Shown here piece after piece: positions 359-64,000 of a stretch of 64,000 nucleotides of DNA. A program made the position numbers and the translations under genes. Below the pieces are notes generated by a model. It ran no database searches and was not told the DNA's origin. It saw only the letters and a list, made by a program, of their open reading frames with translations. Origin of the DNA: a virus; IMG/VR virus record IMGVR_UViG_3300032251_000002, positions 1 to 64,000 of that record; one strand, given 5' to 3'. Positions within the stretch are counted from its first letter, which is position 1. The number at the start of each line of letters is the position of its first letter.

Positions 359-422
359 CTTATATTTTATACTAAAAATAATAAGTGTAACAAGAAATTA
401 GAGACAATAAAGGAGGATGATG

Positions 423-2348
423 ATGAAAAGTGTATTCTTAAACAAGTACAGAGATGAAATGTATAAGATTCTTAAGAGAAAATATGATTTTCTAGATGAA
501 GAAGACTTATTAGAATTCATTGAAACTACTATTAAAGAAAGAATAAACAAACCTAAGTGTATCTTTAGTAATGATTATGTTAAAGAAATTCAAGAGATTA
601 ACTTACTTCAGTTTACAGATTTCTTATTAAAGAGTAAACCTCTTATTACTGGATATGGAACAGTATATAAACAACATACTGATGAAACATCTATTAATAA
701 CACAGCCGATATGCTAGACTTCTTACTTAAGAGTAGAAAAGTATATAAAAAGAAAATGTTTAAGTGTATGAATGAAAAGGATGATGAAGGTGTTAAGTTA
801 AATGATATGATTCAGAAAACAATAAAACTGTTAGCTAACTCATATTATGGTGCATCAGGAGAGAAATCAGCTCAGTTTTATAATCCTAGAATTGGTCCAT
901 CAGTTACTTATTCAGGTGTACAAATTATCACTACTTCAGTAATTGCATTTGAAAGATTCTTAGAGAATAATATTAAATTTAAGAGTATAGATGAGATTTA
1001 TATATTCGTTGAGAATGTATTATCTGAAGAAATAGTTGATGACAGAGGTATTATAGACTCTGATGGATTTATTGATAAAGAAGAATTAGTTGATTACTTG
1101 ATTGAATGTACAACTGATGATACTATTATTGATAGAGAAGCTTTAAAAGATTTTGTTAAAGATTTAGATGTTAATCAATGTACATCTATATACTATAAGA
1201 ATAATTTATTCACTTTAATGCAAAATAGTGAGTACATTCAAGATGAGATTATAGGTGGACTATTAGACCAACCATACTTATCTATTGAAGAGTTCCCAGA
1301 AGATATTGAATCTAGACTTAATGATTTCTGGAATATAGCTCAAAAACATGTGTTCTATGATTATGCTGTTTATGACAGATATGAAAGATGTTTGAATGAT
1401 GAAAGACGTTCAATCTTAGTAGTAGATACAGATTCAAACTTTATTAACTTAGACCCTTGGTTTAAATTTGTTACTAGTATTTATGATGTACCTAGTACAA
1501 CAGAGATGAGAGTAAGTATTATCAATCTAATGGTTTATGTTCTTACACAGTTTATTCAAAAAGCTTTAGATAGACTTACTGAAAACTGTAATGTAACTGC
1601 AGAGAAGATGCCAATCATTAACATGAAGAATGAGTTCCTTTACAAAAGACTTATGGCTACTTCAAATAAGAAACAATATGTTGGTACTCTTATAGGTCAA
1701 GAAGGTAACTTAATCGACCCACCAGAGGTTGATATGAAAGGTTTATCTATTAAGAAAGCAAATGTAAACCATAGAACTAGAGAATACTTTACTGAAATCA
1801 TTGAAAATGATATACTAAATCAAGAAGAAATAGACTTAAATGTTATACTTGGTAAGTTCAAAGAATTTGAAGATGAAATAAGAACAAGTCTAAGAGCTGG
1901 TGAATTAACATTTGCAACACCTGCAAAGGTAAATGAAATAGATTCATATGCAATGCCTTATAGAATTGGACCAGTTAGAGCTACTATAGCTTACAACTAC
2001 CTTTATCCAGATGAACCAATTCAACCACCAGTTAAGATTAATACTCTTAAATTACTTGGTGAGAAGAAAGAAGATTTAAAGTCAATATTTGATTTACCAC
2101 AATATAAGATTATTGATGAAAAGATATTTGGTCATCCTAAAGATGAGTTCAATAAACATGGCTTTAAGCTTATGGGATTACCTAAGAATGTTGATAAGAC
2201 ACCAGAGTGGATTATTCCATTGATTGATGTCGAATCTATCGTTAGTGATAATGTTAGAAATGGTATAATTATACTTGAATCACTGGGAGTTAAAGTAATG
2301 ACTCTTCTTAATTCTAAGAACTATTACAGTAATGTAATTAATTTTTAA
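423..2348 (+). CDS. DNA polymerase family B, C-terminal half (motifs B and C)
   Basis: C-terminal part of a replicative family B DNA polymerase. Motif B is KLLANSYYGASG (about residues 135-150, matching KxxxNSxYG) and motif C is VVDTDSNF (about residues 335-345), supplying the fingers helix and a catalytic palm aspartate. The exonuclease domain and motif A are absent; they lie in the minus-strand gene at 12892-14712. The two proteins together would make one polymerase of about 1250 residues, split between motifs A and B. Three in-frame ATGs follow AGGAGG (411-416); the third (423) has the best spacing. The first 100 residues resemble no usual N-terminus, consistent with a break inside the palm/fingers. 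Split family B polymerases occur in other phages, but halves on opposite strands are unusual. Confidence 0.92.
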   Translation: MKSVFLNKYRDEMYKILKRKYDFLDEEDLLEFIETTIKERINKPKCIFSNDYVKEIQEINLLQFTDFLLKSKPLITGYGTVYKQHTDETSINNTADMLDFLLKSRKVYKKKMFKCMNEKDDEGVKLNDMIQKTIKLLANSYYGASGEKSAQFYNPRIGPSVTYSGVQIITTSVIAFERFLENNIKFKSIDEIYIFVENVLSEEIVDDRGIIDSDGFIDKEELVDYLIECTTDDTIIDREALKDFVKDLDVNQCTSIYYKNNLFTLMQNSEYIQDEIIGGLLDQPYLSIEEFPEDIESRLNDFWNIAQKHVFYDYAVYDRYERCLNDERRSILVVDTDSNFINLDPWFKFVTSIYDVPSTTEMRVSIINLMVYVLTQFIQKALDRLTENCNVTAEKMPIINMKNEFLYKRLMATSNKKQYVGTLIGQEGNLIDPPEVDMKGLSIKKANVNHRTREYFTEIIENDILNQEEIDLNVILGKFKEFEDEIRTSLRAGELTFATPAKVNEIDSYAMPYRIGPVRATIAYNYLYPDEPIQPPVKINTLKLLGEKKEDLKSIFDLPQYKIIDEKIFGHPKDEFNKHGFKLMGLPKNVDKTPEWIIPLIDVESIVSDNVRNGIIILESLGVKVMTLLNSKNYYSNVINF

Positions 2349-5461: not shown

Positions 5462-5500
5462 AATAAAGGTATAGTGTTTAATAGACGCTATACCTTTATT
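5462..5500 (+). terminator. hairpin after RNA polymerase beta'-N
   Basis: 13-bp stem (5462-5474/5488-5500) AATAAAGGTATAG, directly before the next gene's RBS. Confidence 0.65.
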
Positions 5501-5518
5501 ATATTTAAGGAGGATTTT

Positions 5519-5929
5519 ATGGCTACATTAATAGAAGATTTAAAGTTAAATAAACGTCACGAGGAATTACTTAAGATGAGATTTAAAGCTCAGAAATATT
5601 TAACTATTGAAAAAGTTATAATGGAATTAAGTAGAACTGGAGTTCAAGAGTTTATATCTTCATCTAAAGGTATAGGAGTTCAGACCTTTAAAAAAATATA
5701 TAATTCAATATATGAGTTTAATAAAAACTTAATTCCTAAATCGGTTCAGAATGATATAAACTTAAATCTATTCAATATAAGATATATTGAAGAGTTTACT
5801 ATGGATGAAAAAAACTTTATAAAAGATATGATACTATTTTTAGAAACAATGAATATGGAATTTCCAGATAAAATACTTGAAATACGTTCAATTAAAGAAA
5901 AGGTTAATATTCATCATAATCGTAAATAA
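5519..5929 (+). CDS. hypothetical protein with possible helix-hairpin-helix segment
   Basis: A 136-residue protein immediately downstream of beta'-N and its terminator hairpin. The start ATG at 5519 follows AAGGAGG at ideal spacing; the upstream in-frame ATG at 5474 lies inside the hairpin and is rejected. Residues about 25-65 (a helix, then KGIGVQTFKKIY and a further helix) resemble a helix-hairpin-helix DNA-binding motif like that of RNA polymerase alpha-CTD, but the match is short. The remainder is helical. A link to the phage RNA polymerase is suggested only by adjacency. Confidence 0.6.
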   Translation: MATLIEDLKLNKRHEELLKMRFKAQKYLTIEKVIMELSRTGVQEFISSSKGIGVQTFKKIYNSIYEFNKNLIPKSVQNDINLNLFNIRYIEEFTMDEKNFIKDMILFLETMNMEFPDKILEIRSIKEKVNIHHNRK

Positions 5930-5938
5930 TAACGTGTT

Positions 5939-5953
5939 AAACATATATTATAA
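5939..5953 (+). promoter_or_regulatory. class I promoter motif, large RNA candidate
   Basis: AAACATATATTATAA (core 5944-5951), followed by the structured region without an ORF. One of the best matches to the class I consensus. Confidence 0.6.
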
Positions 5954-5959
5954 ATATGG

Positions 5960-6547
5960 ACTAGTAATTTAAAGACAATATATTTATCAAAAGGGGGGTA
6001 AAAATAACGATAACTACTAGACCATATTTTTAGCACTATTCAATATAATTTTTAAAGGTATATAAAAAGAGAACATAACCTTTAAGTTTTCTACAATCTA
6101 ATTCATGACTCCATATTCTAAAAAGAATATGGAGGTGTTTAACTATGGATACAGTAGTAGGAGATTAATTACAGTAAATCAACAAGCTAAAAAGATAAGG
6201 GAGCTATAGAATCGATGATAAAGATTAAAAGAAGTATACCGAATCAAATAGAGAAAGATTCACAATATTTTTGCAAATACTTTAGTCCTTTCTTCTCGTA
6301 CACAAATGAAACAGAAAATAAACCAATATAGGAATATATTGGTTGAAATAAATTTGTGGAGTCGTAATTAGAATATTACGGTCTGAGGAAAGGGGCTTAA
6401 ATGAACATAGAAGTTGCTAGGAAGGAGGGTAGAAATATCTTCTTTCCGTAATGTGTTGGAAAACACTGGTTGTGGTATTATGCAAAAGATAACAATAATA
6501 GAGAGGTTATTACATATTAAAAAAAAAGAGACCTCTCTTTTTTTTTT
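5960..6547 (+). ncRNA. candidate large structured non-coding RNA (about 590 nt)
   Basis: The 700 bases between 5929 and 6632 contain no convincing gene, yet hold a class I promoter at the left (core 5944-5951), many strong hairpins and an intrinsic terminator at the right. Hairpins seen: an 11-bp stem 6109-6119/6124-6134 with an AAAA loop; a 10-bp stem 6321-6330/6335-6344 capped by GGAA, enclosed by CACAAAT/ATTTGTG (6301-6307/6352-6358); CGTAAT/ATTACG (6363-6368/6375-6380); and GTGTT-GGAA-AACAC (6453-6466) enclosed by CGTAAT/ATTATG (6447-6452/6477-6482). Two GNRA-type loops and nested stems argue for a folded RNA. Size and phage context recall classes such as ROOL or GOLLD, but I could not match a consensus. 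A 7-codon ORF at about 6145 is probably incidental. The 5' end is estimated from the promoter. Confidence 0.6.
6500..6547 (+). terminator. terminator of the large RNA candidate
   Basis: AGAGAGGT (6500-6507) pairs with ACCTCTCT (6531-6538) and is followed by a long U-run. Confidence 0.65.
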
Positions 6548-6558
6548 GTATGATTTAT

Positions 6559-6573
6559 AGACATATATTATAT
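6559..6573 (+). promoter_or_regulatory. class I promoter motif, macro-domain/SbcC operon
   Basis: AGACATATATTATAT (core 6564-6571), just downstream of the RNA terminator and about 60 bases before the macro-domain ATG. Confidence 0.6.
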
Positions 6574-6631
6574 TAATGTAAAAAAGAAGGATATAACACT
6601 TATATAAATCAATTAAACAAGGAGGACGTAA

Positions 6632-7078
6632 ATGATTTACAATGAAAAACGAGGAGACATATTTGAACTGGACACTAATTGGGTATTAGGACATTGTATT
6701 AGTGCTGATTACAAAATGGGTAAAGGTATTGCTCTGGAGTTTAACGAACACTTTAACATGAAGTATCAATTAATTAAGGATGGAAGACATAAGTTTCCAG
6801 CAGTTGTAGGATTTGATAATCTTGGTAAGAATAAAGACCAAGTTGTTTTTAACATTGTTACTAAAGAAAAGTTTAGAGATAAGCCGACTTACTCTAACTT
6901 TAGAAAGTCTATTGAATTACTTAAAGAAGACTTAATTGATTACAACTTCAAAAGAATAGCTTTACCTAAGATTGGTACAGGTTTAGATGGTTTAAAGTGG
7001 GCAACAGTTAAACGTCATATTCATGAAGTGTTTGAAGATACTGATATTGAAATTTTAATAATAGACAAAAATATGTAA
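6632..7078 (+). CDS. macro-domain protein (ADP-ribose / ADP-ribose-1''-phosphate processing)
   Basis: A stand-alone macro domain of 148 residues. The ligand-binding loops are visible: GHCISADYKMGKGIA (about residues 20-34) and LPKIGTGLDGLKW (about residues 112-124), matching the small macro proteins of the Poa1p/TARG1 type, which hydrolyse ADP-ribose 1''-phosphate or remove ADP-ribose. The same genome encodes a Tpt1/KptA RNA 2'-phosphotransferase (46148-46699) whose reaction releases ADP-ribose 1'',2''-cyclic phosphate, so a shared pathway is plausible but unproven. It has a class I promoter (core 6564-6571) and AGGAGG before the ATG, and is followed at 13 bases by the SbcC-like gene, probably as one operon. 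Confidence 0.85.
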   Translation: MIYNEKRGDIFELDTNWVLGHCISADYKMGKGIALEFNEHFNMKYQLIKDGRHKFPAVVGFDNLGKNKDQVVFNIVTKEKFRDKPTYSNFRKSIELLKEDLIDYNFKRIALPKIGTGLDGLKWATVKRHIHEVFEDTDIEILIIDKNM

Positions 7079-10201: not shown

Positions 10202-10918
10202 TTATTCAAATTCAACTACTTCATAGATATTACCATCACTAGCTTCAGCATATGTTACTTCATTATCTTCAAAAATATTGATTACTGATAGACTTGATAA
10301 ATCAACACCTTCTACAATAGAAAGCTCTCCATCATCTTCAGCTAATGCATAGAAGTTTCCTTCCATATCAGCAACTACTTCATAATTTTCATCACTAATT
10401 TCTTGTTCATCATTAATATTACCCATACCCTCATTTTTCATTATACTTGTAATTTCAGTTGAACTAATATCACCTGACTCTACATGTTCATCAAATATTT
10501 GGTCTAACTGAGAATCTATATCATCATCAGACTCTACATAAGATGTTGTATCACTGGGTTTAACATTTCCTTGATTTTCAGATATCATATCAAATAATTG
10601 TTTAGTAAGACCTTCACTTAATGAACTAGAACCTTTATTAAGATTGGCTTTCTTAAATTCAAAGTCAGCTTTAGTTTTCTTGATATTTATCTTTTCTTTT
10701 ATTAAACTTATTTTAGTAGTCTTTATTGAAACTAAATTACCTGTTTGTTTCTCTATAAATCCTAATACTCCACGGTTATTAGAACCTTTAATACTATCAA
10801 AGTGTGTTTTAACTTCATCATATAAACCATCTATATTAGCCATTTCTTCATCTAATAAACTTATCTCAGCATCAAATGTATCGGAAAAATCTAATGCATT
10901 TTTTAATTCTTCACTCAT
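10202..10918 (-). CDS. hypothetical acidic protein
   Basis: A 238-residue protein. The N-terminal half (to about residue 120) is helical and coiled-coil-like with Lys/Glu heptads; the C-terminal half is very acidic and ends with three short repeat-like units (YEVVADMEGNFYAL, NEVTYAEASDGNIYEVVEF). No family is recognised; a virion or scaffold-like role is conceivable. The ATG at 10918 has GGAAGG at good spacing; a GTG nine bases upstream overlaps it and is less likely. A 14-bp inverted repeat lies just upstream (10932-10975). Confidence 0.65.
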   Translation of the reverse strand: MSEELKNALDFSDTFDAEISLLDEEMANIDGLYDEVKTHFDSIKGSNNRGVLGFIEKQTGNLVSIKTTKISLIKEKINIKKTKADFEFKKANLNKGSSSLSEGLTKQLFDMISENQGNVKPSDTTSYVESDDDIDSQLDQIFDEHVESGDISSTEITSIMKNEGMGNINDEQEISDENYEVVADMEGNFYALAEDDGELSIVEGVDLSSLSVINIFEDNEVTYAEASDGNIYEVVEFE

Positions 10919-10931
10919 ATAAACCACCTTC

Positions 10932-10975
10932 CTTTATTTAATAATTAGTTCTTATTTTTATATTATTAAATAAAG
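10932..10975. repeat. 14-bp inverted repeat upstream of the 10202-10918 gene
   Basis: CTTTATTTAATAAT at 10932-10945 is perfectly inverted at 10962-10975 with a 16-base spacer. It lies directly upstream of the ribosome binding site of the acidic-protein gene, so it may be an operator or a 5'-UTR hairpin. Neither promoter class is found here in a clean form. Confidence 0.5.
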
Positions 10976-11034
10976 ATTTTTATATGTTCCAAAAAATAAA
11001 GTAAATACCTCATTGAGACATTTACTTTATCCTG

Positions 11035-11517
11035 TTACAATATTATTGTTTCTATTCCACATTTCTCTAAAAGTTTAAATGCTTCTGGTGCATCATCATA
11101 AACATCACTAAATACCACACGTTTAATACCTGCAGATATAAGTAATTTTGCACATGAATTACAAGGACTTAGTGTTACATAAGCTGTAGCACCTTCAGTA
11201 GATATACCATTTTTAGCAGCTTTAGCTATAGCATTCTGTTCAGCATGTATTTCATTGTCTAAAGACCAGTCATGATGTTCTTCTGAATGACTACAAACGA
11301 ACCATAAATCATCAATCTTTGTACTCCAAATACCTGAGTTCTTAACAAACTTATCATCACAGTTAGGTTGTCCACTATGAGTTCCGTTAATTCCAGATGA
11401 AATAATTTGTCCATCTCTAACTAATAAACAACATACCTTCTTAGCTGCACAATGACTCATTTCAGCCATACTTAAGGCAATTTCCATAAACTTTTTATCC
11501 CATTTAGTTATGTCCAT
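11035..11517 (-). CDS. deoxycytidylate (dCMP) deaminase family protein
   Basis: A zinc-dependent cytidine/dCMP deaminase of 160 residues. HAEQNAI (about residues 92-98) gives the Zn-binding His and catalytic Glu, and PCNSCAK (about residues 118-124) the two Zn-binding Cys; the spacing is that of ComEB/T4 gpcd-type dCMP deaminases. It converts dCMP to dUMP in pyrimidine deoxynucleotide supply. An N-terminal HCAAKKVCC segment may hold a structural site. The start ATG abuts the stop of the upstream gene, so the two are translationally linked. Together with the 5'-nucleotidase at 3218 it shapes dUMP/dTMP pools. Confidence 0.9.
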   Translation of the reverse strand: MDITKWDKKFMEIALSMAEMSHCAAKKVCCLLVRDGQIISSGINGTHSGQPNCDDKFVKNSGIWSTKIDDLWFVCSHSEEHHDWSLDNEIHAEQNAIAKAAKNGISTEGATAYVTLSPCNSCAKLLISAGIKRVVFSDVYDDAPEAFKLLEKCGIETIIL

Positions 11518-12873: not shown

Positions 12874-12900
12874 AGAAGAATAGAAATTAATCTATTCTTC
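12874..12900 (-). terminator. hairpin at the end of the polymerase N-half gene
   Basis: GAAGAATAG/CTATTCTTC stem followed by pyrimidine-rich sequence on the minus strand; it overlaps the stop codon. Confidence 0.55.
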
Positions 12901-14712
12901 CATCTCAGCTTCTATTAGTTGCATAAATTCTTCTACACTTGGTAAACCAAACCATAATCTTCCGATTTGAATCCAGTCATGGCTTACAAATGTATCTATA
13001 AACTTATAGCCTTCATCCTCTGGTATTAATTTTTTCTTTAGTGCTTCTACATAAACATCACTGTGATTAAACATTAAATCAATCAGTGCATCTAGGGAGA
13101 CAATACTCTTTTCATCATAATCAAATATATTATTCTTTTCTAGGAATAATACAAGAGCTGCTGGACTAGGAATCTTCTCAGCAAATAGTAATATTAATTT
13201 ACCTAATTGTGTACTAACATCAATATTGAATGCTAGGATAATACTAGGGTACAGAGACGATAAATCGAAGTCAATAACATTTTCATGTATAAATCTACTA
13301 CGTAAACCATTAATCAATTTACCCATAGCTGCATTAAGTAATGGATTAGCTACAAACGCTCCACGGAATTTCTCTGATTTAGGTCTGTCTCCACCATAAG
13401 TTTGATTACGGTTATTTGACATGATAAACCCTTGGTCTGCTATAAACTTAGATGCTAAGTTCTTAAGACATACTGTCTTCTTAAGAGTATGATTAACTCT
13501 TGTTTGTGTCATTGATGCTATCATATTAAGCATTTCTAAATCTTGATTCTTTTCCTCAAGAATGTAAAGTAAGATTGTATCGTGAATTGAGTATTCAACG
13601 AATCTTCTATAATTCTTCCAAGGGAAGTTTTTGATTGTAGCACCTTCATTATCTGGGTCAATAGAAACTTTACGCTCATCAATTTCTTCTTCACATATAG
13701 CATCTAAAGCATACGACTCTTTTTTACCAAATATTTTTCTTAAGTTAGCATAAAGAAGTAATTGGTCTTTAAAGACAGTATAGTTTGAGCATTCAAAGTA
13801 ATCAGTCTTATCAGCAAAATCTTGATGTCTATTATCTTCATAGTAATATGCTTGTTGATAAGGAATTTCACTAGAACACATAATATCTTCAACATCATAA
13901 CCTAATTTAATAATACGGTTATATAGTGTAAGAATATCGAATTTCATGTTCCAAGCCATTACATAATCTAATTTAAGTTCATTGATTAATGTAAAGAAGT
14001 CAACTATTAAATCAATTTCTTCATCATACATCTTAAGTTTAACTTTAATATCTAAATCATAATTGTCAGCATATTTAGCTTTAATTTCTTTCTTAAAAGC
14101 TTTGATGTCAGCTTCAAACTCTTCAATAAGAGGATTTTCTTCATTTCTCAAGAATAGTCCATATAGAGTCATTGTCTGTGCATCAAAGAAAGTAATTGCA
14201 TTAACTTCACATGGTGCAACATGTTCATCTGGGAAACCTTCATTATCTTTACCGTCAACCTCGATATCAAAGAATCCTTTAGTTATAAGGTTATTACTTT
14301 TGTCCATTGGATACTTATCAAAGTGTTTTGCTATATAGATATCTTGAATATCCATATCAGATGCGTGTACATTTGGATTAAGGTGTAACTTTCTAGCGTA
14401 ATGAGCCTTACCACTTTTTAGACAATCATAATAGAATGCTTCTTCATCTAATTCAATCGCCATTGTTTTTAATAAGTCTCTGTAATCACATGTAATTTCT
14501 CCAACAGAACTTGGTTCTATGAATGTAACAGGTGTATCTAGTTCTTCACCTTGTTTGTTTACATAAAACGTTATCTCTGGGTCATCAACTACTTCATGAA
14601 ATTTCTCACCAGTCTCTTCGTTCTTCATTATCATAACTAGCTTGTCATCAAATTTGTCGCTACCATACTTTTGACGAAAATATGTAGTCTTGATTAGTTG
14701 GTGTCTATCCAT
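12892..14712 (-). CDS. DNA polymerase family B, N-terminal half (exonuclease domain and motif A)
   Basis: N-terminal 606 residues of a replicative family B DNA polymerase. The 3'-5' exonuclease motifs are present: Exo I FFDIEVDG (about residues 146-153), Exo II AWNMKFDILT (about 253-262) and Exo III VEYSIHDTILL (about 372-382). Polymerase motif A is DFDLSSLYPSII (about residues 481-492). Motifs B and C are missing and are encoded on the + strand at 423-2348. The protein ends cleanly about 115 residues after motif A with its own stop and a terminator hairpin, so this is an evolved split rather than a random truncation. The ATG follows AAAGGAGGG. The two polypeptides presumably assemble into one enzyme. 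Confidence 0.93.
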   Translation of the reverse strand: MDRHQLIKTTYFRQKYGSDKFDDKLVMIMKNEETGEKFHEVVDDPEITFYVNKQGEELDTPVTFIEPSSVGEITCDYRDLLKTMAIELDEEAFYYDCLKSGKAHYARKLHLNPNVHASDMDIQDIYIAKHFDKYPMDKSNNLITKGFFDIEVDGKDNEGFPDEHVAPCEVNAITFFDAQTMTLYGLFLRNEENPLIEEFEADIKAFKKEIKAKYADNYDLDIKVKLKMYDEEIDLIVDFFTLINELKLDYVMAWNMKFDILTLYNRIIKLGYDVEDIMCSSEIPYQQAYYYEDNRHQDFADKTDYFECSNYTVFKDQLLLYANLRKIFGKKESYALDAICEEEIDERKVSIDPDNEGATIKNFPWKNYRRFVEYSIHDTILLYILEEKNQDLEMLNMIASMTQTRVNHTLKKTVCLKNLASKFIADQGFIMSNNRNQTYGGDRPKSEKFRGAFVANPLLNAAMGKLINGLRSRFIHENVIDFDLSSLYPSIILAFNIDVSTQLGKLILLFAEKIPSPAALVLFLEKNNIFDYDEKSIVSLDALIDLMFNHSDVYVEALKKKLIPEDEGYKFIDTFVSHDWIQIGRLWFGLPSVEEFMQLIEAEMEE

Positions 14713-63207: not shown

Positions 63208-63222
63208 AAACATATATTATAA
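63208..63222 (+). promoter_or_regulatory. class I promoter motif, small RNA candidate
   Basis: CAAACATATATTATAA-like (core 63213-63220). No ORF downstream; the structured RNA candidate and a terminator follow. Confidence 0.6.
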
Positions 63223-63227
63223 TAATG

Positions 63228-63438
63228 AACTTACTAATCCTAATTATATAATATTCTAAAGTAATGAAAGAAACCACAACCCTTTTGTTATGTTTAGTTA
63301 GCATTAGTAAGATTACCCCTATAGAGGTTTGATATAAAATGAAATGCTATTAAGCCCAGCATTGAAAGTTGTGTCTTACCTTTATTTAGATTTGAAACCA
63401 TCCTAACCTTCTCAGTTAGGATGGTTCTTTTTTTTTAG
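63228..63438 (+). ncRNA. candidate small structured non-coding RNA (about 210 nt)
   Basis: No + strand ORF follows the class I motif, yet the segment ends in a perfect 12-bp hairpin (63396-63407/63415-63426) and a U-run. Inside, complementary segments can pair: CTTACTAAT (63230-63238) with ATTAGTAAG (63303-63311), CACAAC (63275-63280) with GTTGTG (63368-63373), AATGCT (63343-63348) with AGCATT (63358-63363) and a CTATAG-centred hairpin at about 63316-63331. Promoter, structure and terminator together suggest an expressed RNA, unrelated in sequence to the larger RNA at 5960-6547. The 5' end is estimated. Confidence 0.55.
63396..63436. terminator. bidirectional terminator, small RNA / 63435 gene
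   Basis: Perfect 12-bp stem AACCATCCTAAC/GTTAGGATGGTT, with a long T-run on the + strand. Confidence 0.75.
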
Positions 63439-64000
63439 TAATTACTAAACAACGCTTCTAAGTCAATGTCTTCAGACTTAACTTCAGAATCATCATTACC
63501 ACCAAAAATAGATGGTTTAGTTTTCTTAACTTCTTTACGTTCTTCTTTAAACCAATCAATATTGACATCTTCATCATTAAATAAAGAAATCTTCTCTCTC
63601 TTCTTAAACTTACCCTTAGCAGACTCAACACTATCCATAACTAATTTAAGTCTATCTTCTGGGAAACTTAAACCTGTAAGAATAGATACAATATAATTCT
63701 TATTGTCATCTGCAGAATAATATCCTTCAAATGTTTCAATTGGTTGACCAATATTTTTATGGAAAATATCATAATCGATAAACTTAGTTGCTTCTTCTTG
63801 AAGTTCGAAGATATATCCACTTCTTTTAATTACTTTATCATACTGTAAAGAAGCAAATATACTTGAATTCCAAGATGAGTCTAATGCTTCTGCAATAGTT
63901 TCTGAATCATTAATTTGATTCATAACAGTTACAGTTATTGACATACAGCCTGGAGTAAACATTAATTTAGATAAATCTTTACTATCCATATTACCATACT
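63435..64000 (-). CDS. C-terminal part of an unrecognised protein (runs off the window)
   Basis: The frame continues to the right edge and no RBS precedes the ATG at 63989, so the start is probably outside the window. At least 184 residues are seen: a mixed alpha/beta region with SWNSSIFASLQYDKVIKRSGYIFEL, then a Lys/Glu-rich linker and an acidic tail ending DIDLEALFSNY. The tail looks like a short clamp- or partner-binding peptide. The convergent terminator (63396-63426) also ends this gene. No family recognised. Confidence 0.6.
   Translation of the reverse strand, partial: YGNMDSKDLSKLMFTPGCMSITVTVMNQINDSETIAEALDSSWNSSIFASLQYDKVIKRSGYIFELQEEATKFIDYDIFHKNIGQPIETFEGYYSADDNKNYIVSILTGLSFPEDRLKLVMDSVESAKGKFKKREKISLFNDEDVNIDWFKEERKEVKKTKPSIFGGNDDSEVKSEDIDLEALFSNY

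What the first reader, a model, noticed from the sequence alone, without database searches (positions are those of the whole stretch)
5960..6547. Roughly 590-nt structured RNA candidate between beta' and macro-domain genes
A 700-base gap in an otherwise packed genome has its own class I promoter, many nested hairpins including two GGAA-capped stems, and a terminator. The size and phage setting resemble large ornate RNAs (ROOL, GOLLD), but I could not match any consensus from memory. It could be a new class, or a divergent known one.
Basis: partly seen in the sequence, partly recalled or inferred. Interest (0 to 1): 0.75.

Follow-up and report, generated by a model that had tools for sequence, protein, structure and literature searches.

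The report
Orphan early structured phage RNA
A relative of the giant Bacillus phage AR9 appears to make, right after infection, a roughly 590-letter folded RNA that encodes no ordinary protein and matches no known RNA family; what it does is unknown and no close relative of it could be found.

Summary
The window is part of a PBS1/AR9-like phage (virus record G000, 97.6 kb). The 702-nt gap 5930-6631 holds one transcription unit: an AR9-type early (virion-RNAP) promoter, predicted start G5958, and a terminator ending near 6547. A second early promoter then serves the macro-domain gene. The window has 10 such promoters against 0.07 expected. The 3' domain 6269-6487 is closed by 13 bp and holds a three-way junction. 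It folds far better than shuffles (z -7.0 sense, -3.9 antisense; lowest of 91 coding controls -3.5). No Rfam family matches, ROOL/GOLLD/OLE/introns included. No homolog turned up by blastn, a covariance model over 49 related records, or an exact-word scan of IMG/VR, so covariation could not be tested. Codon usage rejects the longest ORF (38 aa). The one coding-like element is a 7-codon ORF (MDTVVGD) with a very strong Shine-Dalgarno site locked in a hairpin; the nearest relative has a similar one (MPEVVTED) in the same interval. AR9, BpSp and several relatives have early units with strong-SD micro-ORFs near beta', but no recognisable RNA homology. Best reading: an orphan immediate-early structured RNA, probably acting as RNA. 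A ROOL/GOLLD label is not supported.

The parts
5939..5958 (+). AR9-type early (virion RNAP) promoter AAACATATATTAT-6N-G, predicted TSS G5958
   Evidence: one mismatch to the AR9 consensus (PMC5312081)
5958..6547 (+). predicted ~590-nt early RNA
   Evidence: promoter plus terminator; fold z -4.9 without terminator; no gene-like coding window in any frame
5961..6020 (+). 5' hairpin starting at the TSS (CUAGUA/UACUAG, inner UUUAUC/GGUAAA)
   Evidence: mean pair probabilities 0.65-0.89
6109..6134 (+). 11-bp hairpin CUCCAUAUUCU-AAAA-AGAAUAUGGAG that locks the Shine-Dalgarno site 6131-6137
   Evidence: pair probability 0.99; SD unpaired probability 0-0.3
6145..6168 (+). micro-ORF MDTVVGD* with SD GGAGGTG
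   Evidence: SD energy -13.2 kcal/mol, 0 of 200 shuffles as good; gene-like codon score but only 7 codons
6215..6331 (+). 38-aa ORF, judged not coding
   Evidence: codon score below all but 0-0.5% of true gene pieces and typical of noncoding sequence; an ORF that long occurs in 84 of 500 shuffles; no tblastn match in phages
6269..6487 (+). structured 3' domain: closing stem 6269-6281/6474-6487, three-way junction (6284-6295/6385-6397 with arms 6301-6358 and 6362-6381), hairpins 6413-6452 and 6453-6466
   Evidence: z -7.0 and pair probabilities
6500..6547 (+). intrinsic terminator
   Evidence: 9-bp stem and T run
6559..6578 (+). separate early promoter of the macro-domain gene 6632-7078
   Evidence: macro domain

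Best explanation
A stand-alone immediate-early RNA gene of a PBS1/AR9-like phage. The injected virion RNA polymerase starts at G5958 and stops at the terminator near 6547 (inferred from motif matches). The product is about 590 nt: a 5' part with a hairpin-locked Shine-Dalgarno site and 7-codon ORF, and a compact, stably folded 3' domain of about 219 nt (predicted from thermodynamics). It most likely acts as an RNA early in infection, for example by binding a host protein or the ribosome during take-over; the micro-ORF would either recruit ribosomes to it or be opened when a partner melts the hairpin (inference, weak). The target is not identified.
For: Promoter class, 10 in the window against 0.07 expected, with the consensus measured in AR9. 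By script and inspection, 13 of the 16 such promoters in G000 lead to an ORF about 17-71 nt downstream; 5958, 63227 and G000 65987 instead lead to a terminator with no ordinary gene. Strand-asymmetric fold signal above all coding controls. No gene-like coding window in six frames and no similarity to proteins of relatives. The downstream macro gene has its own promoter, so the unit is separate. PhiKZ is reported to make noncoding RNAs (review PMC13282480).
Against: No transcript data. No homolog in any collection searched, so no covariation test. A low fold energy alone does not prove function, and the 5' half is only weakly structured. The strong SD leaves open that a tiny peptide is the product.
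Confidence: 0.55

Rival explanations
1. It is a micro-protein mRNA: an early unit whose product is a tiny peptide (MDTVVGD or another short ORF), the rest being long untranslated regions.
For: SD of MDTVVGD is stronger than in 200 shuffles; 8 of 10 comparable early units in this virus and relatives carry a strong-SD short ORF, each reached by 0-9 of 200 shuffles; the nearest relative G005 has MPEVVTED, SD in a hairpin, between the same two genes, and these were the only two of 77 strong-SD micro-ORFs listed that carry the VV motif; BpSp annotators called its 30-aa ORF (gp210).
Against: 7 codons is very short for a protein; SD and most of the start codon are predicted paired; peptides of the different phages do not resemble each other by eye; the strongest structure begins 100 nt downstream of the ORF and is not needed for it. 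The VV match was picked out after looking.
Confidence: 0.2
2. A leader/attenuator that controls the macro-domain and SbcC genes in cis: micro-ORF, then RNA folds, then a terminator that can be read through.
For: Order micro-ORF, structured RNA, terminator, genes resembles peptide-leader attenuators; the terminator has two alternative stems.
Against: The macro gene has its own early promoter after the terminator, 54 nt upstream of its start, so readthrough is not needed; in the same genome the 65987 unit ends facing a gene on the other strand.
Confidence: 0.1
3. Decayed protein gene or degenerate intron without function, kept near a promoter and terminator.
For: No conservation found; relatives have other genes or introns in this interval.
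Against: No gene-like codon window in any frame and no blastp similarity of the six frames to ORFs of relatives; no group I/II match although the AR9 and L050 introns are found by the same models; the fold is more stable than coding controls.
Confidence: 0.1
4. A divergent member of ROOL, GOLLD, OLE or another known large RNA family.
For: Size about 590 nt, phage setting, GNRA-type GGAA loops.
Against: No match to these models even at E up to 10, no tRNA island.
Confidence: 0.05

Closest known systems
Noncoding RNAs of jumbo phage phiKZ (as cited in the review PMC13282480)
   Same: Jumbo-phage noncoding transcripts of unknown role
   Different: No sequence compared here; different phage group; promoter class of those RNAs not checked
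ROOL RNA / GOLLD RNA (PMC12286853)
   Same: Several hundred nt, phage-encoded, many helices, unknown function
   Different: No Rfam match, not near tRNA genes, no homologs, no evidence for multimers or covariation
Early micro-ORF units of AR9, Goe21 and BpSp near beta' (AR9 predicted start 116698; only BpSp gp210 annotated)
   Same: AR9-type early promoter, roughly 450-nt RNA with long leader, strong SD with a short ORF, terminator, same gene neighbourhood (beta', g142 family, SbcC)
   Different: Opposite orientation to beta'; sequence and model R2 do not match the window RNA

Membership tests
ROOL / GOLLD / OLE | match to the family covariance model | tested here: not met
   cmscan at gathering thresholds and at E up to 10, no match
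ROOL / GOLLD / OLE | location near tRNA genes (frequent for ROOL and GOLLD, not strictly defining) | tested here: not met
   ARAGORN finds none in the window
ROOL / GOLLD / OLE | homo-oligomer | not testable with these tools
   needs cryo-EM or native gel
Group I or II intron | catalytic core recognised by Rfam models | tested here: not met
   no hit, while introns of AR9 and L050 are found
AR9-like early transcription unit | AAATATATATTAT-(6N)-G promoter | tested here: met
   one mismatch; 10 against 0.07 expected
AR9-like early transcription unit | early transcript from that promoter | not testable with these tools
   needs RNA data from infected cells
AR9/BpSp type RNA near beta' | match to model R2 built from AR9, Goe21 and BpSp | tested here: not met
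   best window match 16.2 bits, E 1.3, elsewhere in the window
New structured-RNA class | covariation among homologs | tested here: inconclusive
   no homolog found in 49 related records or in the collections
Peptide-leader attenuator | terminator readthrough into the regulated gene | not tested
   needs RNA data; own promoter of the macro gene speaks against

The most novel reading that the evidence does not exclude
PBS1/AR9-like jumbo phages each carry, near the virion RNAP beta' gene, a fast-evolving immediate-early RNA that combines a hairpin-locked, very strong Shine-Dalgarno site and a micro-ORF with a folded RNA body: a new type of ribosome-engaging take-over RNA, of which the window RNA is the largest and most structured.
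Probability: 0.15. Interest if true: 0.72.

Novelty: new variant of a known kind. Interest (0 to 1): 0.42.

Why it matters
RNA genes transcribed by an injected phage polymerase in the first minutes of infection would be candidates for host take-over or counter-defence factors and are invisible to protein annotation. In AR9 at least one such unit, a 250-nt stretch behind an annotated early promoter and closed by a strong terminator, sits upstream of a virion structural gene where it could pass for a long 5' UTR, so the idea can be tested in B. subtilis with a laboratory phage.

Tried and rejected
Rfam at gathering and permissive thresholds: nothing; the weak sroB, AbsR25, purine and cow-rumen-4 matches are chance-level. 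blastn in phages and plasmids and in 11 IMG/VR relatives: no homolog, only short matches such as promoter-like ones. Covariance model R1 of domain 6268-6488 on session loci and 49 records: the hits inspected are mostly intergenic terminator hairpins, the rest low-scoring, none convincing. A 17-base exact scan of IMG/VR: none. A shared 10-mer TAAATGAACA with AR9 and BpSp was dropped: their unit runs on the other strand and R2 does not match. G005 region versus window RNA: alignment score no better than shuffles. phiR1-37 gap 10450-11064 looks like a group I intron by eye, not a counterpart. A first genome-wide folding scan timed out and was replaced. RNase P and tmRNA resemblances were considered by eye and are not supported by any model.

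Full report
Setting. The window is part of a 97.6-kb IMG/VR virus record. Its capsid protein is 47% identical to Bacillus phage AR9/PBS1 and its beta' subunit 46-47% to Bacillus phages Goe21 and BpSp, so it is a PBS1/AR9-like phage. Closest sequences found: 56% (capsid) and 58% (beta') in IMG/VR; the tools say still closer records may be left out.

Observation. Between ORF 5474-5929 and the macro-domain gene 6632-7078 lie 702 nt without an ORF of 60 aa. AAACATATATTAT-AAATAT-G at 5939-5958 matches the early promoter consensus AAATATATATTAT-(6N)-G measured in AR9 (PMC5312081). Ten such motifs occur in the window; shuffles give 0.07. The unit ends with a 9-bp stem and a T run (6500-6547). A second early promoter (TSS 6578) follows and serves the macro gene.

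Structure. Energy folding gives z -4.9 for 5958-6499 and z -7.0 for 6268-6488 (none of 150 and 200 shuffles as good); the antisense strand of the domain gives -3.9; 91 coding pieces of equal length to the domain give mean -0.8 and minimum -3.5. In an independent scan the 150-nt piece at 6301 ranks third of 426. The domain has a 13-bp closing stem, a three-way junction with two arms (one capped by GGAA) and two further hairpins (one capped by GGAA). The 5' half is weaker (z -2.75), apart from the TSS hairpin and a perfect 11-bp hairpin at 6109-6134.

Coding. The longest ATG ORF (38 aa) has codon usage typical of noncoding sequence and a length that arises in 84 of 500 shuffles. No six-frame similarity to ORFs of relatives. 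The exception is MDTVVGD* at 6145: its SD pairs with the 16S tail at -13.2 kcal/mol, unmatched in 200 shuffles, but SD and most of the start codon are predicted paired. In G005, the nearest relative by beta', MPEVVTED* with an SD inside a hairpin lies between the same two genes (beta' and SbcC), downstream of an early-type promoter. This likeness was noticed after the fact and is short; I treat it as a lead.

Relatives. AR9, Goe21 and BpSp have, near beta' and on the other strand, an early-promoter unit of roughly 450 nt with a strong SD, an ORF of 26-30 aa and a strong terminator. L072, L076, L079 and L093 have comparable units near beta', and AR9 has another behind the annotated early promoter at 181705. 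In eight of ten units tested the SD-ORF beats 95% or more of shuffles. Neither blastn nor covariance models link these RNAs to the window RNA. A counterpart by position and architecture is therefore supported; homology is not.

Other units in this virus. By script and inspection, 13 of 16 early promoters in the 97.6-kb record lead to an ORF within about 70 nt, and three (5958, 63227, 65987) to terminator-bounded units without an ordinary gene. The window RNA is the largest of the three.

Interpretation. I rate an immediate-early structured RNA acting as RNA at 0.55, a micro-peptide mRNA at 0.20, a cis attenuator at 0.10, a relic at 0.10, and a divergent known large RNA at 0.05. Steps shown by computation: promoter match, terminator, fold signal, lack of coding signal, lack of Rfam match. 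Steps inferred: that it is transcribed, when, and that the RNA itself acts. Function remains a guess (host take-over or ribosome contact). Novelty rests on lack of matches in the collections searched, which is weaker than positive evidence for a new class.

Noticed in passing
window 63208-63440: Early promoter (TSS 63227), about 205 nt without ordinary gene, 5' stem CTTACTAAT...ATTAGTAAG and strong terminator: a second early noncoding unit.
   Followed up: partly
L102 2069-2368 (G000 C1 65968-66267): Third early unit: promoter, 21-aa hydrophobic ORF MLHRSILCFVIIFRLFVPNII with strong SD, its end inside a long duplex, terminator. Codon usage is not gene-like.
   Followed up: partly
L180 3524-3860 (AR9 181724-182060): Annotated AR9 early promoter followed by about 250 nt with micro-ORF MFKALRTVLSIIGLQ and a strong terminator, upstream of virion gene g214.
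   Followed up: partly
L070 7541-7815 (G005): Early promoter and about 250-nt compact structured RNA with terminator, before a 261-aa ORF; no Rfam match.
   Followed up: partly
L091 13522-21481: 332.9-kb virus record with 23 tRNA genes and a tmRNA (tag ANKLIANAMINQVVFA) downstream of beta' in the stretch fetched.
   Followed up: no
L050 2017-3504, L055 9220-12741: Group I and group II intron matches around the beta' gene of AR9 and group II matches in an IMG/VR relative, with homing endonucleases annotated in AR9; the window beta' gene is uninterrupted.
   Followed up: no
window 417-2348 and 12892-14712: Two separate ORFs on opposite strands both match DNA polymerase families, covering different parts of the same profile (phrog_262), suggesting a split family B polymerase.
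   Followed up: no
L093 11838 (+) and L090 12729 (-): Two further strong-SD micro-ORFs with a shared ETxGG motif, MDDFETCGGSY and MDHETAGG.
   Followed up: no
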